Source of the DNA: Beijerinckiaceae bacterium
GTDB taxonomy: Bacteria; Pseudomonadota; Alphaproteobacteria; Rhizobiales; Beijerinckiaceae
Direction: 5' to 3'
Length of the DNA stretch: 64,000 bases
NCBI GenBank assembly: GCA_004564215.1
Contig: CP024846.1
Span: 496,001 to 560,000 of the forward strand
Shown piece by piece: positions 1-39,587 of this stretch. Position 1 is the stretch's first letter, and every line of letters starts with the position of its first letter. Under the pieces are notes generated by a model. It saw nothing but the letters and a program-made list of their open reading frames with translations, did not search any database and had not been told where the DNA came from. Made by a program: the position numbers and the translations under genes.

Positions 1-1497
1 TCCGGAAGCGCCGCCTACGCCGACGATCCCATGAGGGAAGGCAGGTCCGCGGCGCAGCCCACCAATGAGGAATTGATCGAAAAGCTCGAAAAGATGGAAG
101 CGCGTATCCGATCTCTTGAAGGCGAACTCCATCGCAAGGCAGCGACGAGTCAGGAGTCGAAACCCCGGGTCGCCGCCCGCGGCAAGCCGCAGAATGCACC
201 GGCAGCCCCGGAAAACATCCCACCTCCGCCGGCGGATGAGCAAGTTGCGCTGGTGCCGCTCCCGCCACCGCCAAACCATGATCTGTTCGGCGTGGCGCCA
301 TCGCCCGTCCCCGGCCTCAAGATCGGCGCCTATGGAGAGCTTCGGTTCGGCGGGCAGCAAAATCCGGCGGCCAACGGACAATGGCAAACCGGCTTTGACG
401 CCGCGCGCGTGGTGCTGCTTCCATCCTACCAGTTCAACGACAATATTATCTTCAATGCCGAAATAGAGTTCGAGCACGGCGGTATCGCCTTCGATGCCGA
501 CGACAAGCTGCATGGCGCGGTCGATATCGAACAAGCCTATGTCGATTTCAGGATCGCACCTTATTTCAATATTCGTGCGCCCGGCATCGATCTCGTACCC
601 ATCGACTGGATCAATCTGCATCATGAACCGACGCTGTTTTATAGCGTAAGGCGGCCGGAACTCGACAATGGATTAATTCCGACAACCTGGAAGGCGCCAG
701 CGGCGAGCATCTATGGGCAGATCCTCGACGGGTTGGGATATCAATTCCAGATCAGCCAAGCGCTTGAGGATTTCGGGGGCGATTTTGACGCACGAACCGA
801 CGCCAACACCCCGGTTCTCTTCCCGATCGGATATACGGCCGGAATCAGCGGCATCGAGGCGCTGGGGCTGGCGCAGGCGCCTTTGGGAGACTTCCGTCAG
901 CTCAGCAACTATCTCGGCTACACGCTACGCCTGTCCTATACCCTGCCGTTCCTTCCAGGATTTGATGGCGGGAGCTCGGTTTATTTCACTCCGAGCACAA
1001 CTCCACGGGGCGCCTATGGCAACACCGGGATTCTTCTCGGCCGTTCGAGTTTGACAGTTCTGGAAACTGACTTCCGCTACCACGTCCCTGAAACGGGTCT
1101 CGAATTTCGCGGCGAATTCGCCGAAGTTTTCATCGGCAGCCCGGCCAATATGCGGGCCAACAATGATACCGACCCCTTCAACAATGTTGGCAAGACCATG
1201 TTCGGCGCATCGGGCGAGGTCGCCTATCATCTTCCGATCGGTGTGATTTTGGGCAGCAATTGGGAGGCGGTTCCCTTCTATCGCTATACGTTCCAGAATT
1301 TTCAAACGGGCGGCTTCGCCGGAACCGATTTGAACATCCCAACGGGAGCGGGCATCACTCAATTCCACGATATCGGCCTTGCGGTCTATCCGACGCCGGA
1401 ACTTGTTTTGAAAGTTGGTTACACCAAGGTGATCAATGCGGCGCCGGGAGGACCTCTGTCCGACAGCGTTTTAGGCGGCGTCGGTTTCTTCTTCTGA
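1..1497 (+). CDS. Outer-membrane porin, phosphate-selective OprO/P-like (5' end outside window)
   Basis: The reading frame is open from the first base and reads SGSAAYADDP before the first internal Met, which looks like the end of a Sec signal peptide with AYA|DD cleavage, so the true start lies left of the window. After the cleavage site there is a short charged helical stretch (EELIEKLEKMEARIRSLE, probable coiled coil) and a Pro-rich linker, as in trimeric porins. The rest is rich in aromatic/polar alternation typical of a beta-barrel and ends in Phe (GVGFFF), the usual outer-membrane C-terminal signature. The protein should be an outer-membrane channel; substrate is unknown. The FMN-binding gene starts 60 bp downstream on the same strand, so it may belong to the redox operon that follows. 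Family assignment is by overall style; specificity cannot be read. Confidence 0.65.
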   Translation, partial: SGSAAYADDPMREGRSAAQPTNEELIEKLEKMEARIRSLEGELHRKAATSQESKPRVAARGKPQNAPAAPENIPPPPADEQVALVPLPPPPNHDLFGVAPSPVPGLKIGAYGELRFGGQQNPAANGQWQTGFDAARVVLLPSYQFNDNIIFNAEIEFEHGGIAFDADDKLHGAVDIEQAYVDFRIAPYFNIRAPGIDLVPIDWINLHHEPTLFYSVRRPELDNGLIPTTWKAPAASIYGQILDGLGYQFQISQALEDFGGDFDARTDANTPVLFPIGYTAGISGIEALGLAQAPLGDFRQLSNYLGYTLRLSYTLPFLPGFDGGSSVYFTPSTTPRGAYGNTGILLGRSSLTVLETDFRYHVPETGLEFRGEFAEVFIGSPANMRANNDTDPFNNVGKTMFGASGEVAYHLPIGVILGSNWEAVPFYRYTFQNFQTGGFAGTDLNIPTGAGITQFHDIGLAVYPTPELVLKVGYTKVINAAPGGPLSDSVLGGVGFFF

Positions 1498-1557
1498 TCC
1501 CTAGCGAGGGAATGTATGATTGGCGCAACGGCCGCTATGAAAGAGGAGAGCGCTTGA

Positions 1558-2025
1558 ATGAGTGACTGGGTCCGCTGGACTGCGCCAGCGGCGGCAATCG
1601 CAATGGCTTTGCCGGCTTACGCCTATCAATATACAACGGTCGGCGGCGCACAGCAGCAGGCCTTCCCAGGTGCGCGTTTCGAGGAGATCCAATCCCAGCG
1701 GGTTTGGAAAGCGCGGGCTGGCGACAAGGTGGTCGGCTATTTCTTTGTCGATCATGTTATCGGCAAGCATCTTTATATCGACTACTCGGTTGCCTTGGAT
1801 GCGGATGGGCGAGTCCGCCGGGTGGAGATCCTCACCTATCGGGAGTCCTACGGCGGCGAAGTCGCCAATGCGAGTTGGCTTTCGCAATTCATAGGCAAAA
1901 GCAGCGGCAGCGCTCTCGAAGTCAACCGGGACATTCGCAATATTTCCGGTGCCACCTTGTCGTCGCGGCATGTGACTGAAGGCGTCAAACGGATTTTGGC
2001 TTATTATGCCAGCCACTTGCGATAA
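1558..2025 (+). CDS. Secreted FMN-binding domain protein (covalent flavoprotein)
   Basis: 155 aa. Residues 1-22 form a signal peptide with AYA|YQ cleavage, so the protein is periplasmic. The C-terminal half carries the flavinylation motif DIRNISGATLSS: Thr133 in SGAT is the expected phosphoester attachment site for FMN, as in NqrC, RnfG and NosR FMN-binding domains. The start is supported by a GAGGAGAG ribosome site ahead of ATG 1558. The next gene, apbE, encodes the enzyme that makes exactly this modification and overlaps this gene's end by 20 bp. Inferred role: a one-domain periplasmic electron carrier with bound FMN. The donor and acceptor are unknown. Confidence 0.85.
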   Translation: MSDWVRWTAPAAAIAMALPAYAYQYTTVGGAQQQAFPGARFEEIQSQRVWKARAGDKVVGYFFVDHVIGKHLYIDYSVALDADGRVRRVEILTYRESYGGEVANASWLSQFIGKSSGSALEVNRDIRNISGATLSSRHVTEGVKRILAYYASHLR

Positions 2026-2920
2026 TCTTCGCCGCTTGCGGCCGCTGCTTGGGACTTTCGTCGAAGTTGCGGTCGCCGATTCAGATGCAGAGGCCATGGA
2101 AGCTGCCGTGGAAGCAGCCTTCGTGGCGATCGACACTGTACATCGGCTGATGAGCTTTCACGACCCGGAAAGCGATGTGAGCCGCCTCAACCATGGCGCT
2201 GCAAAGTCGGCAATCGCGGTGCATCCCTGGACTTTTCAGGTGCTCGAAACGGCGCTCGATCTGCATCGCTGCTCCCTTGGCATGTTCGACATCAGAATTG
2301 CCCCTGTCTTGCAGTCGCTCGGCATGTTGCCCTATCACGAGGGCGATCCCCCTTTAGCCAATGCCTCGGCACGAGACCAAGCGCAGATCGAATTGCTCTC
2401 CGGTCAAACCGTCCGGTTCCATGACAGCCGAACCCGGATCGATCTCGGGGGGATCGCCAAGGGCTTTGCGGTTGATCGCGCGATCGACGTGTTGCGAAAG
2501 TCAGGGATTTCCTCGGGCCTCGTCAATGCTGGCGGCGACCTTGCTGTCTTTGGGCCAAAAGGCATGATGGTCACAATCCGCGATCCGAATTGTCCAAGCA
2601 AAGGCCTGTGTCAGGTCGAGCTCCGCAATGCCGCGCTCGCAACCAGCGGCGCTCGATCCGAGCCCTTGCAGCGGATTGAACCGACCGGCCCCGAAGTCAT
2701 CGATCCCGCCACAGGGGAGCCGGTGGGCGTAGTGCTGGGGGCGAGTGTTCGGGCCCCCACTTGCCTCTTGGCCGATGCGTTGACAAAGATCGTCATGATC
2801 GGCGGAGAAAAATCGGCACCCCTCTTAAGGCAGTTCGATGCCAGCGCTCTTTTCGTATCGGCGGAAGGTGAAGTCCTTGTCAGTTCTGAGTGGCAAAATG
2901 CTACCGTTCTGGCGGCTTGA
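2006..2920 (+). CDS. apbE: FAD:protein FMN transferase ApbE
   Basis: 304 aa, full length for the family. N-terminal RLRPLLGTFVEV, then SFHDPESDVSRLN and the core IDLGGIAKGFAVDRAID followed by VNAGGDLAVFG are the conserved ApbE blocks for FAD and Mg2+ binding. The enzyme transfers FMN from FAD to a Thr/Ser of a target protein; the SGAT motif of the gene immediately upstream is the obvious target. The ATG at 2006 lies inside the upstream gene, suggesting translational coupling. No signal peptide or lipobox is visible, although many ApbE proteins act outside the cytoplasm. Either a start was missed or modification happens before or during export. Confidence 0.9.
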   Translation: MPATCDNLRRLRPLLGTFVEVAVADSDAEAMEAAVEAAFVAIDTVHRLMSFHDPESDVSRLNHGAAKSAIAVHPWTFQVLETALDLHRCSLGMFDIRIAPVLQSLGMLPYHEGDPPLANASARDQAQIELLSGQTVRFHDSRTRIDLGGIAKGFAVDRAIDVLRKSGISSGLVNAGGDLAVFGPKGMMVTIRDPNCPSKGLCQVELRNAALATSGARSEPLQRIEPTGPEVIDPATGEPVGVVLGASVRAPTCLLADALTKIVMIGGEKSAPLLRQFDASALFVSAEGEVLVSSEWQNATVLAA

Positions 2921-3329
2921 GCCCCCGTTCCGTTTTGCGGTCTACATCACCTTTTCGGTGTTGTTCGCAAGCGGCGCCGCTTGGCTTGTCGCCAATGCGC
3001 TGAAGGAGTCAGCCGAAGGGGAGTTCTGGCAGGAAAGCGGCGCTTATCTGCTGGCGCTGCATGGGGGCGCAGCCATGCTGATTCTGATGCTGCTCGGCGC
3101 GCTTTTTCCTTTGCATATCGGGCGAGCCTGGCAAGCCAGGAAAAACCGCGCGACCGGCATCATCGTGACGATCTGCAATGCCGCCCTGATCGCGACCGCT
3201 TTCGGGCTTTATTATCTCAGTTCGGACGCACTGCGTCCCTGGTCGAGCGACCTTCACATCAGCTTCGGACTGGCCTTACCATTGCTGCTTCTGGCGCATA
3301 TCAAGATTGGGCGAGCGCAACGGAAATAG
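2898..3329 (+). CDS. Four-helix membrane protein with paired histidines (putative b-type cytochrome)
   Basis: 143 aa from ATG 2898, which overlaps the end of apbE by 23 bp; a longer frame from 2838 lies within apbE and is less likely. Four hydrophobic helices are visible at about residues 13-34, 52-72, 86-107 and 121-134. Histidines sit at both ends of helix 2 (His55, His73) and helix 4 (His120, His134), a placement seen in membrane cytochromes b that bind two haems. No family name can be given with certainty; DUF4405-like or ferric-reductase-like small proteins are the nearest idea. Its place in the FMN-protein/ApbE operon suggests it passes electrons from the quinone pool to the flavinylated periplasmic protein. 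This role is inference. Confidence 0.6.
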   Translation: MLPFWRLEPPFRFAVYITFSVLFASGAAWLVANALKESAEGEFWQESGAYLLALHGGAAMLILMLLGALFPLHIGRAWQARKNRATGIIVTICNAALIATAFGLYYLSSDALRPWSSDLHISFGLALPLLLLAHIKIGRAQRK

Positions 3330-3341
3330 GCCCGTGTCTTC

Positions 3342-4691
<1,350 letters not shown>

Positions 4692-4860
4692 TCATGCGGG
4701 CTTTTACGCCGAAGCGCTGCAGAAAAAAAGCCTCGGTCTTCAGCATTTTTCGACGAAACTTGTCGGCTGCGTTAAAACACGTGAACATGCAAACCTAACG
4801 CTGTCAGAGACCCTTAAACTTTATCGGGCTAGCATCGTTGGTTCGCCGGGAGGAGGAAAA

Positions 4861-5685
4861 GTGGCATTTAACCGGTTTGCCTTATGTTCCGTCGTCATCC
4901 TCGCACGGAAGCTTTGCTGGAGCTGCTTGGCGTTCGCGTTGAGTCTACCAGCTGCGGCAGCGATGGCTGCCGTGCTGGAAAACCCGCCCCTGCCGGTTCC
5001 AAGGCCCGATGAGCGCGTCCCTCAGTCCATCCCCGCCCTGCCTGCCGCGCACCCGCTCTCTGAAACCGTGCCGGGCGCCGCCGCGACGCCGCTCGGCCGC
5101 TCCGACCTCGCACCGACGCGCAAGGCCTATCGCCTGCTCATCCAAAAAGAAGCCGATAAAAACGGCTTGCCCGCGGACATCGCGGATTCCGTCGCGGCAA
5201 TCGAAAGCGGCTACGACCCTGCGGCGACGGGCGCGGTCGGTGAAATCGGATTGATGCAAGTGCGGCCGGAAACCGCGGCTATGCTTGGGTTTAAAGGGGA
5301 TTTGACCGAACTCGCACGGCCCGATGTCAACATCCATTATGGAGTGACCTATCTCGGGCAGGCGTGGCGACTGGCAAACGGCGATCTTTGCCGGGCTCTC
5401 ATGAAATACCGCGCCGGTCATGGCGAGGAAACCATGTCGGCCCTGTCCGCGAGCTATTGCGGCCGGGCGCGAGCGCATTTGGCAGCTATTGGCTCGCCCT
5501 TCGCGGCAGGGGCCAGCGTTCCCTTCGTCTACGATCCGATAGTCCCAATAATCCCAAAGGTTAAACGCGGGCCAAGGATCAGAACGGCGGCGACAAGCCG
5601 GGCGTTTTGGGCGGCGCATGAGGCGCGGGTCAAGGCGTTGACCGCGCAGATCGAAGCTAAATGGCGGCGGATGGCATCGCGATAG
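4861..5685 (+). CDS. Secreted soluble lytic transglycosylase (SLT domain)
   Basis: 274 aa starting at GTG 4861, directly preceded by a GGGAGGAGG ribosome site; longer upstream frames run antisense to eno and are rejected. Residues about 10-40 are a signal peptide. After a Pro-rich linker, the SLT domain runs from about residue 90 to 205: catalytic Glu115 in AAIESGYDP, then GEIGLMQVRPETA and NIHYGVTYLGQ, with a Cys pair near the domain end. The enzyme should cleave the MurNAc-GlcNAc bond of peptidoglycan in the periplasm, releasing 1,6-anhydromuropeptides. The 3' end overlaps the convergent epimerase-like gene by 29 bp. Confidence 0.9.
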   Translation: MAFNRFALCSVVILARKLCWSCLAFALSLPAAAAMAAVLENPPLPVPRPDERVPQSIPALPAAHPLSETVPGAAATPLGRSDLAPTRKAYRLLIQKEADKNGLPADIADSVAAIESGYDPAATGAVGEIGLMQVRPETAAMLGFKGDLTELARPDVNIHYGVTYLGQAWRLANGDLCRALMKYRAGHGEETMSALSASYCGRARAHLAAIGSPFAAGASVPFVYDPIVPIIPKVKRGPRIRTAATSRAFWAAHEARVKALTAQIEAKWRRMASR

Positions 5686-6655
5686 TCGGTTTTTGGCAAT
5701 CCCGGGCCGGCTGGGAATCGGCGAACTCGTTCTTAAATCCTTCGCGCCAGCTCGGCCAGAGAAGAGGCTCGCCGAAGGTTTTTTTCGCCTTGGCATTGGA
5801 GGCGCCGCGCGCTTCCGTCATCAAAATGAAGGCATCGCCAATCAAGAGACGCGCCATCCAGGTGGGAACATGCCGTGGCGGCGGCGCGCCGAGAATGGCC
5901 GCCAAGGCCGGCAGCCACTCGGAAACGGGGGCGGGATCGTCATCGACAATGTTGTAGATCCCAGGGGCTCCTTGTTCCACCGCCGCGAGGGTGATGCGCG
6001 CGACATCGTCGATATGAATGAAAGACCAAATGCCCTCGCCGCCCCCGATGATCGGAACTCGGCGCTGGCGAATATCCTCGATCAGAGCGCCATCCTTCCC
6101 GAAAGCTGTGCCTGGCCCGTAAAAAGCGCCATAGCGTAGGATCACGCCCTCCATGGATTTTTCACCCATAACCTTGGCTTCGAGATAGCGGAGGGCATCG
6201 AGCGTGCGGCGGAAGGCCGGGGGTGGACTTGGATCGAAGCGATCCCCCTCCTTCTTGACCGGGGCGCCCTCGCGCGCGTAAGGCCAGCCCGCGAAGCTCT
6301 GAGCAATGAAGCGGCGTACCCCTGCAGCCCGCGCTCCCGCCAGCAAATTGTCCGTCCCTTCGGTTCGCAGGCGATTGGTCTCGGCGAATTCTTGGTCATA
6401 GCGGCTAAGGTCGAGATGGTGGGAAATCGCGGTCAGCTGGTGGATGATCACGTCCGGCTGGAACCGCTGAATGGCTCTCATCACATGGGAGGGTTCGAGC
6501 GCATCGGCAATCACGGGCTCGGCACCGAGGCTATGCACGGACCCGGCTTTCGCGGCCGAGCGTGTCAAGGCAGCCACCTTGTGCCCTTTTCCGACCAGGA
6601 GGGGCACGAGACGACGGCCAACGACTCCGCTGCCCCCCGCAACGAGAATTTTCAT
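5657..6655 (-). CDS. NAD(P)-dependent epimerase/dehydratase family protein
   Basis: 332 aa. The N-terminal MKILVAGGSGVVGRRL is the Rossmann nucleotide-binding GxxGxxG of extended short-chain dehydrogenases. Further family blocks are VIIHQLTAISH, RFIAQSFAGWPY, VILRYGAFYGPGT and FIHIDDVARIT. The usual YxxxK is not clear, as in several atypical extended SDRs that act on unknown sugars or polyketides. The substrate cannot be read from the sequence. The gene stands alone, convergent with the lytic transglycosylase. Confidence 0.75.
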   Translation of the reverse strand: MKILVAGGSGVVGRRLVPLLVGKGHKVAALTRSAAKAGSVHSLGAEPVIADALEPSHVMRAIQRFQPDVIIHQLTAISHHLDLSRYDQEFAETNRLRTEGTDNLLAGARAAGVRRFIAQSFAGWPYAREGAPVKKEGDRFDPSPPPAFRRTLDALRYLEAKVMGEKSMEGVILRYGAFYGPGTAFGKDGALIEDIRQRRVPIIGGGEGIWSFIHIDDVARITLAAVEQGAPGIYNIVDDDPAPVSEWLPALAAILGAPPPRHVPTWMARLLIGDAFILMTEARGASNAKAKKTFGEPLLWPSWREGFKNEFADSQPARDCQKPTIAMPSAAI

Positions 6656-6861
6656 GAGAGACGTCCAGCTGAACGGTTCGAAAAGGGGTTTCTCCTTGAA
6701 CCGTAACCCAAGATAACTTCAACCGATGACGTTAGTTGCACAGATGTTTCGACGTTTGGCAGTTTATTTGCGATGGAACGGGGGTTCGGCTTCGGCAATA
6801 ATACAAAATTCGCCGATCGATCGTTCGGGAGGCCCGTATAGCTGCCGGAAATCCCAAGCCC

Positions 6862-7323
6862 ATGGCCAAAACCCACACCGGAACAAGTCTCCTCGGCCAA
6901 AATGTTGCCGCGCCGCAAACGCCCGACGAGGCAACGCTCGATCGCGTGCCAAACCCCCACCGGGGCACCAATTACATCGCCCGCTTCACGGCGCCGGAGT
7001 TTACATCGTTGTGCCCGGTGACCGGCCAGCCGGATTTCGCCAATCTTGTGATCGACTATCTTCCTGGCGCGTGGCTCCTCGAATCCAAATCCCTAAAACT
7101 CTATCTGACGTCGTTTCGCAACCACGGTGCTTTTCACGAGGATTGCACTTTGCGGATCGGGAAGGATCTCGTCGCCTGTCTCGAGCCGGTTTGGTTTCGG
7201 ATCGGGGGGTACTGGTACCCGCGCGGCGGCATACCCATCGACGTGTTCTGGGCCGTGGGAGAGCTGCCTCCAGGCACCTGGCTTCCGGATCAGGGGATTT
7301 CGCCCTACCAAGGCCGCCGCTAA
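6862..7323 (+). CDS. queF: NADPH-dependent 7-cyano-7-deazaguanine reductase
   Basis: 153 aa, the short unimodular QueF type. It reduces preQ0 to preQ1 in queuosine biosynthesis. The nucleophile is Cys51 in [11 protein letters not shown] with Asp58 as acid, and the QueF signature [15 protein letters not shown] follows, then HEDC. The gene is alone on the plus strand between two minus-strand genes. The leader (6656-6861) was inspected for a preQ1 riboswitch and none was convincing. Confidence 0.95.
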
Positions 7324-7333
7324 AGTTTAAGGG

Positions 7334-8974
<1,641 letters not shown>

Positions 8975-9043
8975 TTATCCTGTTTTAGCCCCCTTGGGGA
9001 GTTTAATTTCGTTGCGCGGCCGTTTGTGCACCAAAGAGTTTGG

Positions 9044-9544
9044 TCACTTCGAGCTGGGCGTTCCTGGCTGAGGTTTGACCGGGCCTGGCGCGGCGGGGGC
9101 CGACTGTGACGGGGCCTGCGGCACAGCCGATTCCGGAGCCGGGACCATCGGCGCAAGCGGGCCTCCTGGCGGCAAAGTCAGACCCGGAATGCCGGTCCCT
9201 GAGGTTTTTTGCTCTTCCAGCCGCCTCAATTGATCAAGCAAATTACCCTTGCCCTCATCCGGCTTGGCCGCGTCCCCAGTCGGTGCAACGGGTTTCACGG
9301 ATTGCAGGATCGTCTCAGGGCCCTGGTTCAGACGCGCCAGCACGGTCAAGCCGAGGCTGGTCGCAAAGAACAGCGCGCCCAAAATGGCGGTCAATCGGGT
9401 CAAGACATTGGCCTGGCCGCGCCCGGTCATGAACCCGCCGCCGCCGCCGACGCCCAGCGCGCCCCCCTCGGAGCGTTGCAAGAGCACGGTCACGACAAGC
9501 GCGACAACGACCATAAGATGAATAACGATCAGCACCGATTGCAT
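9044..9544 (-). CDS. secG: Preprotein translocase subunit SecG
   Basis: 166 aa. Two membrane helices: residues about 3-22 (VLIVIHLMVVVALVVTVLL) and about 52-70, joined by the glycine-rich loop GALGVGGGGGFMTGRGQANVLTR, the SecG signature. A long Pro/Ala/Gln-rich cytoplasmic tail follows, as is common in rhizobial SecG. It assists SecYE-dependent export at the inner membrane. tpiA lies upstream and pyrG downstream on the same strand. Confidence 0.93.
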   Translation of the reverse strand: MQSVLIVIHLMVVVALVVTVLLQRSEGGALGVGGGGGFMTGRGQANVLTRLTAILGALFFATSLGLTVLARLNQGPETILQSVKPVAPTGDAAKPDEGKGNLLDQLRRLEEQKTSGTGIPGLTLPPGGPLAPMVPAPESAVPQAPSQSAPAAPGPVKPQPGTPSSK

Positions 9545-9782
9545 GAATTAAGCTTTCGTCTCTTCGTCAGGCCAGTTTCCGGACCCGCGCACCTTGTTTC
9601 CAAATTTGCGCCGTCTGGCAAGTCCTGGCTATTTTGGCTTTTCTCGCGGGGGCAGGCCCTTTCGGCGGCCCCAAAACTGGACGACCTGCCCGCGACAGGC
9701 CTGAACTTCGAAGAAGCTCTTATACCGAGCGACCTACCGCTGGCTAGTGCCAACCGACCCGGCGGCGGCGCAGCAGGGGGAT

Positions 9783-10550
9783 TTAGCCGCAATCCTGATA
9801 GAATCCGGCAATTGCCATAAAATCTGTACATTGGAGGCTGGCGCCGCCGACGAGCGCCCCATCGACCTGATCGATGGCCAAAAGCTCCGCGGCATTTGCC
9901 GGCTTGACCGATCCTCCATAGAGAATGCGGACCGAAGCACCCTGCCCCGGTAGGTGTTCGTCCAGGCCGCCCCGAATGAAACCATGCATGGCAGCAACGT
10001 CTTGGGGCGTTGGCGTTAGACCCGTGCCGATGGCCCAGACCGGTTCATAGGCGATGACGACGCTTCCCGGCACCGGATTTTCCGGAATCGAGCCCGCCAA
10101 TTGCCTCGCGACGATCGGGAAGGCTTCGCCCGCTTCGCGCTCGGCTCTTGTTTCGCCGACGCATATGATTGCCGTGAGCCCGGCGCGGAGCGCCGCCCTC
10201 GCCTTGCACCGAACGATCTCATTGCTCTCATGATGGCCGGCGCGCCGCTCCGAATGCCCGACAATCACATAAGTCGCCCCGGCATCCTTCAGCATTTCGG
10301 CCGAGATGTCGCCGGTAAACGCTCCGCTTGGCTCGGCGTGACAGTCCTGCCCCCCAAGCTTGACCTGAGAGCCTGTGCAAAGGGCAGCGGCCTCAATCAG
10401 CAGCGTGGCTGGAGGGCAAACCAAGATTTCCGCCTTGCCTGCTCCGCCGGCAGCGACGGCGGCACAAATTTCCGCGATCTCCCCAAGGCTCTTGCGCAAA
10501 CCGTTCATTTTCCAGTTCCCCGCGACGAGAGGGCGTGGTCCATGGGTCAT
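9783..10550 (-). CDS. tpiA: Triosephosphate isomerase
   Basis: 255 aa. Family blocks: [10 protein letters not shown] with the substrate-binding Asn/Lys at the N-terminus, the catalytic His in VIVGHSERR, the catalytic Glu in [13 protein letters not shown], and the phosphate-gripping [10 protein letters not shown]. It interconverts glyceraldehyde 3-phosphate and dihydroxyacetone phosphate. The gene heads the tpiA-secG-pyrG run and is divergent from ppiD, with 122 bp between their starts. Confidence 0.97.
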
Positions 10551-10672
10551 GCGAGGGGTTTCCGTCTATTTGGGATTGATGCCGCGTTGCATGCGCTGCC
10601 CCATGTTCTTATAGTCCCGGCCCAAATTGTAAAAGCCAACTCTGTCCGAAACATCAAAGAGACTTTCTCGAC

Positions 10673-12589
10673 ATGCTCGAATCAATGCGTGCTTCCGCGC
10701 AAGGCTGGGTCGGCCGCCTCATCATGGGAATCCTGATGAGCCTGATCATTCTCAGTTTTGCGATCTGGGGGATCGGCGACATTTTCCGTGGCTTCGGCGC
10801 GAACAATCTTGCCCAGGTGGGTGGAATCGAGATTGGCGCCGATACCTTCCGCAACGCCTATCAGACCGAATTGCAGCGTTTGCAGCGACAGCAGCGCCGC
10901 AACGTCACCAATGACGAGGCACGCCGCTATGGACTCGACCGGCAGGTGCTGTCCCGGCTTGTCGGCGATGCGGCTCTCGATGATCAGGCGCGCCGGCTGG
11001 GGCTGGCCATCAGCGATGAAGACATCAAACGGAATATTTTGAACGACGACAATTTCAAGGGCATGAATGGACAGTTCGATCGCCAGATGTTCGACGCTTT
11101 CTTGCGCGACGAAGGCATGAACGAGAAGATTTATGTCCGCCAGCAGCGCGGCATCTATCTGCGCCGCGGCATATTGGATGCCGTAACCAGCGGCCTGCAA
11201 TTGCCGACGGCTTTGCTGGAGGCGATTCATCGCTATCAGACGGAAACCCGCACCGTCGACTATATCCTGTTGCCCGACGCGAACGCCGGAGCCTTGCCGG
11301 CCCCTTCGAACGAAGAACTGAATAAATATTTTGAGGAAACCAAGGCGCTTTTCACGACGCCGGAATATCGGGGCATCGTCACTCTGTCGCTGACGCCCAG
11401 TTCGATCGCCAAGCCCGACAGCGTGTCTGAGGCCGATGCGCGAAAGCGCTACGAAGAAGTCAAGAACGAGCGGTTCGGAGCTCCGGAAAAGCGGACGGTC
11501 GAACAGATTCTTTACCCCAGCGAATCGGCAGCCAAGGACGCCCGCGCCAAACTCGACTCGGGGAAGACCTTCGACGATCTGCTGCAGGAAAAGAACCTGA
11601 CCAAGAAGGACGCCAGTCTTGGAACCGTGACGCGCAGCGGGCTTATCGACAAGGGCGTCGCCGATGCTGTTTTCGCCCTCCCGGAAGGACAGGTCAGCGC
11701 GCCGGTGAAAGCGCAATTCGGCACTGTTCTTCTTCGTGTCACCAAAGTTAGTCCGTCCACCGTCAAGCCCTTTGCCGAGGTTGCGGGGGAGCTCAAACGC
11801 GAAATCGCCGTTCAGCGTGCCCGCGATGATCTCGCCCGTCTTCATGATACCATCGAGGATGAACGCACCTCCGGCAAGTCGTTGACGGAGGCGGCGAAAG
11901 GCGTCGGGCTCGAACCCCGGGTGATCGATGCGATCGACCCGGCGGGGAATGACCCCGAAGGCGTACCGGTCAAGGATCTGGTCAATGCGCCGGTCCTATT
12001 GAAGGCAGCCTTTGCCTCCGACGTCGGGGTCGACAACGACACATTGAAAGCGCCTGAAGGCGGGTATCAGTGGTTTGAAATCACAAAGATCACAAAGGCC
12101 CATACCAAATCCTTCGAGGAAGCAAAGGCCGCGGTCGAGAAGTCCTGGCGGGAAGACGAGGCGGCAAAAGTCTTAGCCGCGAAATCGACCGAGCTTACCA
12201 ACAAACTGAATGCCGGTCAGCCGATCGAGGCGATTGCCGCGGCCGAAGGCAATCTTCCGGTCAAACACGCCAACGACGTGCGGCGCAACGGATCAAGCGC
12301 GCTTCCTCTTAACGTTGCGACCCAGATCTTCAATGTCGGCCTGCATCGCGCGGGCTCGGTGCGCAGCGAAGAGGGCGGCCGGATTCTGTTCCGGGTCGTT
12401 GACTCCAACGTGCCGGCCTTCGATCCGAAGTCGCCCGAACTCATCAACATTGCGGGCGACGTCAAAAGTGGATTCACCGAGGACGTCGTTGTTCAATATC
12501 TCGCAAAGCTCGAAAGCGATATCGGCGTCAAGCTCAACATGAAATCATTTGCGGCCGCGACAGGCGGCGGCTCCGCCGACGCTTATTGA
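10673..12589 (+). CDS. ppiD: Membrane-anchored peptidyl-prolyl isomerase, PpiD/SurA-N family
   Basis: 638 aa. One membrane helix near residues 16-34 (IMGILMSLIILSFAIWGIG) anchors a large periplasmic part. Residues about 35-200 are the SurA-like N-terminal chaperone region, and the parvulin (rotamase) domain lies near 265-365 (ARAKLDSGKTFDDL, LGTVTRSGLID, VLLRVTKVSPS). It should help outer-membrane protein folding at the Sec exit. trpE starts 10 bp downstream, and the ppiD-trp neighbourhood is common in Hyphomicrobiales. Confidence 0.92.
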   Translation: MLESMRASAQGWVGRLIMGILMSLIILSFAIWGIGDIFRGFGANNLAQVGGIEIGADTFRNAYQTELQRLQRQQRRNVTNDEARRYGLDRQVLSRLVGDAALDDQARRLGLAISDEDIKRNILNDDNFKGMNGQFDRQMFDAFLRDEGMNEKIYVRQQRGIYLRRGILDAVTSGLQLPTALLEAIHRYQTETRTVDYILLPDANAGALPAPSNEELNKYFEETKALFTTPEYRGIVTLSLTPSSIAKPDSVSEADARKRYEEVKNERFGAPEKRTVEQILYPSESAAKDARAKLDSGKTFDDLLQEKNLTKKDASLGTVTRSGLIDKGVADAVFALPEGQVSAPVKAQFGTVLLRVTKVSPSTVKPFAEVAGELKREIAVQRARDDLARLHDTIEDERTSGKSLTEAAKGVGLEPRVIDAIDPAGNDPEGVPVKDLVNAPVLLKAAFASDVGVDNDTLKAPEGGYQWFEITKITKAHTKSFEEAKAAVEKSWREDEAAKVLAAKSTELTNKLNAGQPIEAIAAAEGNLPVKHANDVRRNGSSALPLNVATQIFNVGLHRAGSVRSEEGGRILFRVVDSNVPAFDPKSPELINIAGDVKSGFTEDVVVQYLAKLESDIGVKLNMKSFAAATGGGSADAY

Positions 12590-38549: not shown

Positions 38550-38753
38550 TGTTCAAGCTGAATTCGACCGGCTTAAAAGATTACCGACCAGAGTTTATAA
38601 TTGTTCTAATTGAAAACTACTTTTGTTGAAACCCATTTTATTAGGGTGTAAGGGGACATTCATTGTTGCTCAAACGCCGCCGCCGCGCAGTGGCCTGAAA
38701 CCTGCACTGTTTGTTCCGCGCCTTCGCCAACCCCGGGCGCAAGGGAGTTTTGC

Positions 38754-39587
38754 GTGATCGGCGCTCTTATCATCGTTTTGCGCGAAGTCATCGAAGCCGG
38801 GCTGATCATTGGAATCGTCCTGGCGGTCACGCGAAAGATGCCGGGGCACGTTGTCTATATTGTCGGCGGTGTCCTCGCCGGGCTGGCCGGCGCGGCGTTG
38901 GTCGCGATGTTTGCCGGCTCATTGTCCAATGCGCTGCAAGGCATTGGACAGGAAGTTTTCAACGCCTCCATTCTTGCTGTGGCCGTCGTCATGCTGGGCT
39001 GGCACAATGTCTGGATGGCGCGCCACGGGCGACAGATGAGCGAGGATTTGCGCCAATTGGGACGCGATGTCAGCGCCGGATCGCGTTCCCTGACCGCCCT
39101 TGCGATTGTCGTTAGCGTGGCGGTCTTGCGCGAAGGCTCCGAGGTCGTCCTGTTCCTTTATGGAATCGTCCTTTCGAGCGGAGAGTCCGGGCTCAGTCTA
39201 TTGCTCGGTGGTTTCCTCGGGCTTGTCCTCGGAGCCGGGGTCAGTGCCCTCACCTACTCGGGCCTGGTGGTCATTCCGCCGCGCTATCTTTTCCGGGTTA
39301 CCAGTATCCTGATTTCCTTCATGGCCGCCGGCATGGCGGCGCAAAGCGTCGCGTTTCTGGAACAAGCCGATATCGCGACAGGGTTCGGACAAGTTGTCTG
39401 GAATACGTCTTCGTTTCTCACAAGCAACAGCATGTTCGGCCGCGTTCTGCACACGCTCTTGGGCTATACCGACCAACCCACCGCGTTACAGCTGATCGTC
39501 TATCTCGGGACCCTTGCGGCGATCTTCGGTTTTATGAAGCTTCTGTCGCCCCCGCCTGGGCAGGGTCGCCGCCTGGCAACCAACTAG
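38754..39587 (+). CDS. FTR1-family iron permease
   Basis: 277 aa from GTG 38754, preceded by AAGGGAG. About seven hydrophobic helices. Two REXXE-type iron-transport motifs are visible: LREVIEAGLIIG in helix 1 and LREGSEVVLFLYG in helix 4. It should move Fe across the inner membrane. The usual partners (EfeO, EfeB, P19 or a multicopper oxidase) are absent here, so the iron donor is unclear. Confidence 0.88.
   Translation: MIGALIIVLREVIEAGLIIGIVLAVTRKMPGHVVYIVGGVLAGLAGAALVAMFAGSLSNALQGIGQEVFNASILAVAVVMLGWHNVWMARHGRQMSEDLRQLGRDVSAGSRSLTALAIVVSVAVLREGSEVVLFLYGIVLSSGESGLSLLLGGFLGLVLGAGVSALTYSGLVVIPPRYLFRVTSILISFMAAGMAAQSVAFLEQADIATGFGQVVWNTSSFLTSNSMFGRVLHTLLGYTDQPTALQLIVYLGTLAAIFGFMKLLSPPPGQGRRLATN

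What the first reader, a model, noticed from the sequence alone, without database searches (positions are those of the whole stretch)
1..3329. Compact operon for an extracytoplasmic flavin electron relay
Four consecutive genes join an outer-membrane porin, a secreted one-domain FMN-binding protein with SGAT (Thr133), ApbE and a small membrane protein with two His pairs. Gene overlaps (20 and 23 bp) show coupling of the last three. ApbE-linked flavinylated systems are known, but the porin plus a 143-aa His-paired membrane protein forms a minimal version whose donor and acceptor are not established. It could move electrons from quinol across the periplasm, perhaps for metal or envelope redox.
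Basis: partly seen in the sequence, partly recalled or inferred. Interest (0 to 1): 0.72.

Follow-up and report, generated by a model that had tools for sequence, protein, structure and literature searches.

The report
Iron-controlled flavin relay operon
Four bacterial genes appear to build a wire that carries electrons through the inner membrane to a flavin-carrying protein outside it; DNA switches for iron shortage sit in front of the operon in most close relatives examined, so it probably turns rust-like iron into a form the cell can take up.

Summary
In detail: barrel-like outer-membrane protein, secreted FMN_bind protein (Thr133), ApbE, and a 143-aa four-helix membrane protein with four His; overlaps 20 and 23 bp. 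It is co-conserved: of 80 loci with a relative of the membrane protein, 76 have FMN_bind+ApbE directly upstream and 65 also a barrel of one of two kinds. The four His are invariant. Five of 12 distant loci have Fur boxes there; four loci have feoAB upstream. Best reading: a periplasmic ferric reductase induced by iron shortage (quinol, diheme b, covalent FMN, Fe(III)). Heme, flavin and iron reduction are inferred. New variant of flavinylation-linked electron transfer with a divergent DUF4405/b561-like cytochrome; a candidate for the reductase of inorganic iron called unknown in Bradyrhizobium. Oddity: ApbE has no signal peptide although its substrate looks secreted.

The parts
1..1497 (+). Outer-membrane beta-barrel-like protein with N-terminal coiled coil; 5' end outside the window (full ORF in genome L014 7806-9497)
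   Evidence: relatives upstream of FMN_bind in 41 of 80 loci, L152 by a partial 55-bit match
1558..2025 (+). Secreted single-domain FMN_bind protein, predicted flavinylation at Thr133 (SGAT)
   Evidence: PF04205 E 1.4e-10; GATL in 77 of 77 relatives scoring over 80 bits; nearest solved: RnfG
2006..2920 (+). ApbE flavin transferase without a signal peptide
   Evidence: PF02424 E 3e-50; solved ApbEs E 2e-20; leaderless
2898..3329 (+). Four-helix membrane protein, His 55/73/120/134, predicted diheme cytochrome b, DUF4405/b561-like
38595..38609 (.). Irr-type box (1 mismatch) upstream of an FTR1/EfeU-like iron permease; same motif as in front of the operon (the operon's own box lies 306-320 bp before window base 1)
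38754..39587 (+). FTR1/EfeU-family iron permease, possibly co-regulated
   Evidence: NCBIfam EfeU E 1.4e-40, below its cut-off

Best explanation
An iron-limitation-controlled, flavin-based periplasmic ferric reductase. Proposed path: quinol in the inner membrane reduces the inner heme (His73/His134) of the 4-TM cytochrome; the electron passes to the outer heme (His55/His120), then to the covalent FMN on Thr133 of the secreted protein, which reduces Fe(III) or small Fe(III) chelates that came in through the dedicated barrel; Fe(II) is then taken up by Feo or a similar importer. ApbE attaches the FMN. Shown: gene order and its conservation, invariant His and Thr, four-helix model, iron boxes, leaderless ApbE. 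Inferred: heme and FMN content, topology (positive-inside), electron direction, iron as acceptor, expression under iron shortage.
For: Four His invariant in 80/80, 80/80, 79/79, 79/79 sequences, on helix 2 with its continuation and on helix 4 of the model (pLDDT 84.9); b-type cytochromes and heme bundles, incl. STEAP and b561, are among the best structural rows. FMN_bind+ApbE directly upstream in 76 of 80 loci. Irr-type boxes: 68 upstream vs 2 elsewhere, 45 of 50 loci. In this genome one of 10 places at <=1 mismatch is in front of the operon, one in front of a rubrerythrin (0 mismatches), one in front of FTR1. Two IrrA-class regulators encoded, one with GCPF and beside a ferrochelatase by reading. 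Fur 7-1-7 boxes upstream in 5 of 12 distant loci: 9 sites in 2,872 b, 10 in the other ~195 kb. feoAB within 8 kb upstream in 4 of 80 loci, in 3 of them next to the barrel gene. Irr activates iron acquisition genes when iron is short (PMC7762939, passages).
Against: No ferric substrate or iron-binding motif identified. Genome-wide the Irr pattern at <=1 mismatch is not clearly above its reversed control (10 vs 8), so only position and conservation count; of the 7 other places I inspected 2 (L130, L134) and saw no iron gene there, 5 were not inspected. Many loci are close kin, so counts are not independent. Irr can also repress, which would mean use under iron plenty. 7 of 12 distant loci have no Fur box at my threshold, and that test was chosen after seeing the sequences. 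feoB of this genome is unlinked; only 4 of 80 loci link to feoAB. Ten loci have a multicopper oxidase in the barrel's place, perhaps another function. In the structural rows non-heme bundles and ion channels score as high as cytochromes. Known ferric reductases of Bradyrhizobium (FsrB, FrcB) need no flavoprotein as far as I know (recalled).
Confidence: 0.6

Rival explanations
1. Respiratory or protective electron outlet: the relay passes quinol electrons to a periplasmic enzyme (peroxidase, multicopper oxidase, reductase), and iron control only reflects its heme demand.
For: A cytochrome c peroxidase gene lies upstream in Ideonella, multicopper oxidase in 10 of 80 loci; Irr is known to act at peroxidase and iron-storage genes (PMC3413700, passages).
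Against: No single terminal enzyme is shared by the contexts read; Fur boxes and feoAB point to uptake; the barrel is the most constant fourth partner (65 of 80).
Confidence: 0.18
2. Copper reduction or handling module rather than iron.
For: Multicopper oxidase upstream in 10 loci, Cupredoxin_1 after the operon in L003/L099, multicopper-oxidase hits on the other strand in L066 and a cupredoxin hit in L154; CrpH, a PepSY_TM protein, is proposed as copper reductase (PMC13038864, passages).
Against: Irr-type boxes precede 8 of the 10 multicopper-oxidase-type operons too; the window operon itself has no copper gene. Copper genes outside my two query families were not searched for.
Confidence: 0.1
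3. Electrons flow inward: oxidation of a periplasmic donor such as Fe(II) feeds the quinone pool.
For: All parts are reversible in principle; multicopper oxidase variants exist.
Against: Control by iron-starvation regulators and Feo linkage do not fit energy-yielding Fe(II) oxidation; no CXXCH in the four window proteins (read).
Confidence: 0.05

Closest known systems
ApbE-flavinylated extracytosolic electron transfer systems (Meheust 2021, PMC8238504; outline and sections 6, 8, 10, 11, 17, 23 read)
   Same: ApbE + FMN_bind substrate + transmembrane electron carrier in one cluster; iron roles proposed for PepSY-like and MsrQ-like classes
   Different: The four proteins match none of the Pfam membrane keys of their systems; barrel partner; ApbE leaderless; 'porin' and 'b561' have 0 occurrences in the main text; supplements not read
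DUF4405 cytochromes and FezC (Huang 2024, PMC11334425; parts 1-4 of 5 read)
   Same: apbE-linked small membrane cytochrome with four central His; a relative of ours passes DUF4405 (L152 30.4 bits, cut-off 26.7)
   Different: Window protein has no DUF4405 match at E<=1; four helices in one chain, not six; partners here are FMN_bind and a barrel
Bacterial diheme ferric reductases FsrB/FoxB and FrcB (passages of PMC10760861, PMC13038864, PMC8891985; the FrcB paper is not held, details recalled)
   Same: Heme pairs in a four-helix bundle; periplasmic ferric reduction
   Different: No PepSY or large periplasmic domain here; a separate flavoprotein would take that place
RnfG/NqrC
   Same: FMN_bind similarity and Thr-FMN motif
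   Different: Stand-alone secreted protein; no Rnf/Nqr subunit in the operon

Membership tests
ApbE-flavinylated extracytosolic electron transfer | ApbE next to an FMN_bind substrate | tested here: met
   76 of 80 loci
ApbE-flavinylated extracytosolic electron transfer | [S/T]GA[S/T]-like flavinylation motif | tested here: met
   SGAT Thr133; GATL in 77 of 77 relatives over 80 bits, first residue S/A/G/T
ApbE-flavinylated extracytosolic electron transfer | signal peptide on substrate or ApbE | tested here: met
   FMN protein N-terminus by reading and hydropathy (median 1.91, lowest -0.59 in 77 relatives); ApbE has none; no signal-peptide predictor available
ApbE-flavinylated extracytosolic electron transfer | membrane key gene of one of the published systems | tested here: not met
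   Pfam scan of the four proteins against the Pfam keys; the keys given there only as KEGG numbers were not tested
ApbE-flavinylated extracytosolic electron transfer | covalent FMN on the substrate | not testable with these tools
   needs protein
DUF4405 cytochromes | Pfam PF14358 match | tested here: not met
   no match for the window protein at E<=1; 1 of 26 A1 members at E<=0.01; relative L152 above cut-off
DUF4405 cytochromes | four conserved transmembrane His | tested here: met
DUF4405 cytochromes | six transmembrane helices | tested here: not met
   four membrane helices in the model
DUF4405 cytochromes | heme b binding | not testable with these tools
   needs protein
Prokaryotic cytochrome b561 (PF01292) | match over curated cut-off | tested here: not met
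   window 15.5 vs 30.1 bits; relative L123 38.1 bits
Prokaryotic cytochrome b561 (PF01292) | four-helix diheme fold | tested here: inconclusive
PepSY_TM ferric siderophore reductases | PepSY/PepSY_TM domain | tested here: not met
   a separate PepSY_2 protein is upstream in 25 of 80 loci
Irr regulon | Irr box (pattern recalled) upstream and Irr in the genome | tested here: met
Irr regulon | Irr binds the site and changes expression | not testable with these tools
   needs binding and expression assays
Porin-cytochrome conduits (MtrAB, PioAB) | multiheme c-type cytochrome with CXXCH | tested here: not met
   no CXXCH in the four window proteins, read; the rest of the genome was not searched

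The most novel reading that the evidence does not exclude
The barrel and the flavoprotein are a trans-outer-membrane electron outlet, a flavin counterpart of porin-cytochrome conduits: the FMN protein docks in or at the barrel and hands electrons to Fe(III) outside the cell. That a barrel, of two kinds, is the most constant fourth partner leaves this open. A linked oddity is that a cytoplasmic ApbE would flavinylate the protein before export.
Probability: 0.12. Interest if true: 0.85.

Novelty: new variant of a known kind. Interest (0 to 1): 0.62.

Why it matters
In Bradyrhizobium japonicum inorganic ferric iron must be reduced before FeoAB takes it up, and the reductase is stated to be unknown (PMC10760861, passage). 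This operon, behind Irr boxes and in a few strains behind feoAB, is a concrete candidate, with named strains that carry it (Bradyrhizobium sp. BTAi1 and B. nanningense CCBAU 53390; Methylocystis heyeri H2); I did not check whether strain USDA110 has it. It would add a small diheme cytochrome plus a barrel partner to flavin-based electron transfer, suggest a function for hypothetical proteins and DUF6662, and raise the question how a leaderless ApbE serves a secreted substrate.

Tried and rejected
Rnf/Nqr fragment: the FMN protein matches RnfG weakly but no Rnf/Nqr partner is in the operon. FTR1 as fixed partner: the window FTR1 found no relative in the 61 regions then held. A 19-mer Fur consensus was less clear than the 7-1-7 form; the latter was tried after I had seen the upstream sequences, so that test is not blind, and it was not run on this genome. 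The Irr pattern was recalled and chosen before scanning. Foldseek against PDB: no match at E<=0.001. No solved homolog of the membrane protein by sequence. DUF6662 is in no paper held. Searches for a published description of this operon: searches found none in their listings (open-licence library only; supplements not readable, so published cluster tables may contain it).

Errors of mine: L116 was fetched at a wrong place and replaced by L164; searches scanned a 20-aa placeholder; scripts crashed and were rerun; the ORF list contains shadow ORFs; a first form of this report did not fit the schema. Dropped before counts: searches used only loci whose membrane protein scored over 100 bits (48 and 50 loci); one search used 12 of 13 loci (L153 has no upstream barrel); FMN and ApbE counts used frames over 80 and 100 bits (77 each), which leaves out the weak hits in L153 and L154.
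Full report
What is there. The four genes are as described: barrel (cut at window base 1), FMN_bind 1558-2025 with Thr133, ApbE 2006-2920, membrane protein 2898-3329. The operon ends before enolase on the other strand (named from reading). The window lies in a 3.33-Mb single-contig genome; a genome placed in its genus (G740) has the contig length (4,151,390) that one search lists for a Methylocapsa sp. D3K7 protein, so the host is probably a Methylocapsa-like methanotroph (inference). The genome has one ApbE and one FMN_bind match.

Distribution and context. Of the 10 own-genus genomes listed, 2 have it. A search of 72,556 plasmid records with the FMN protein gave 8, of which 5 are typed conjugative and 4 are near-identical Bradyrhizobium plasmids; three of the four regions I opened show the operon, the fourth has no annotation. 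I classified 80 loci, one for each match place of the three profile searches: 76 have FMN_bind and ApbE directly upstream. Before these: PepSY_2 + full cytochrome b561 + barrel 25 (in L082 and L097 the first two lie about 3 kb further up), DUF6662 barrel 24, barrel alone 12, feoAB + barrel 4 (in L075 an opposite-strand FMN_bind-like hit lies between), multicopper oxidase 10, none 1 (L068, barrel downstream). Four are partial: L090 (contig end), L070 (only an apbE remnant), L153, L154 (families). The two barrel kinds are told apart by which query they match; I did not compare them directly. Ideonella carries yet another upstream protein with a weak barrel-porin match. In three annotated plasmid records the barrel and the membrane protein are called hypothetical.

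Iron control. The Irr-type palindrome TTAGAA-N3-TTCTAA (recalled) with up to 2 mismatches occurs 68 times within 450 bp upstream of operon genes and 2 times elsewhere in 50 close loci, 45 of which have at least one; five control palindromes gave 0, 0, 1, 1 and 2 upstream and 4, 1, 14, 1 and 8 elsewhere. An earlier run on 48 loci gave 66 upstream, 1 elsewhere, with 2.2 expected in dinucleotide shuffles. Boxes precede all four architectures of the close group, though not every locus. In this genome the pattern at up to 1 mismatch has 10 places (reversed control 8, so not enriched overall); one is 306-320 bp before window base 1 in front of the barrel, one before a rubrerythrin (0 mismatches), one at 38595-38609 before an FTR1/EfeU-like permease; two others inspected show no iron gene and five were not inspected. 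Two Irr proteins pass the curated IrrA cut-off; one has a GCPF motif and sits beside a ferrochelatase (motif and name from reading). By my reading, 11 of the 24 DUF6662 loci have an Irr-pattern site within 250 bp of the barrel. In 12 distant loci the Fur 7-1-7 pattern (recalled) has 9 sites in 2,872 upstream bases, in 5 loci, and 10 in the rest of 197,771; shuffles gave 4.4 in all, two control patterns 0 upstream. Fur (recalled) and activating Irr both mean use under iron shortage, but a repressing role of Irr is not excluded.

Mechanism. I propose quinol to inner heme to outer heme to FMN-Thr133 to Fe(III) entering through the barrel, then Fe(II) uptake. Direct support is positional and evolutionary; cofactors, direction and acceptor are inferred. 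Porins are documented in low-affinity iron uptake (PMC12815270, passage). B. japonicum needs FeoAB for inorganic ferric iron and its reductase for that is called unknown (PMC10760861, passages); I did not establish that USDA110 itself has this operon.

Leaderless ApbE. Of 77 ApbE frames over 100 bits, 75 show the start motif; 66 cannot be extended by more than 25 codons before it, and the nine that can have no hydrophobic stretch (10-residue hydropathy at most 1.24). The FMN proteins have a median of 1.91, with a few low values (lowest -0.59). The ApbE review says most ApbEs seem secreted and that a cytosolic one serves a soluble fumarate reductase (PMC12052999, passages). Here the substrate looks secreted, so attachment before export, or an unusual route for ApbE, must be considered.

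Verdict. A real, conserved operon of a known kind with a divergent cytochrome, a frequent barrel partner and strong signs of iron control; function as ferric reductase likely but unproven.

Noticed in passing
window 38595-39587: Irr-type box 145 bp before an FTR1/EfeU-like permease; no EfeO/EfeB search was made around it.
   Followed up: partly
window 2006-2920 and relatives: ApbE without signal peptide paired with a secreted-looking FMN_bind protein across the family.
   Followed up: partly
L099, L108-L110, L112-L115, L117, L164: Multicopper oxidase takes the place of the barrel; in L003/L099 a Cupredoxin_1 gene follows the membrane gene.
   Followed up: partly
L172 (Methylocystis heyeri plasmid) 2864-12566: Multicopper-oxidase-domain protein and a ferritin-like protein directly after the operon; copper oxidase genes and a transposase before it.
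   Followed up: no
L174 (Ideonella dechloratans plasmid) 4210-8597: Cytochrome c peroxidase and a 440-aa putative barrel precede FMN_bind, ApbE and the membrane gene.
   Followed up: no
L014 35-7420: RND-type efflux genes flanked by two porin-like genes upstream of the operon, outside the window (named from reading).
   Followed up: no
L153, L154: Relatives of the membrane gene without the usual upstream pair; L153 carries a stop according to the genome search.
   Followed up: no
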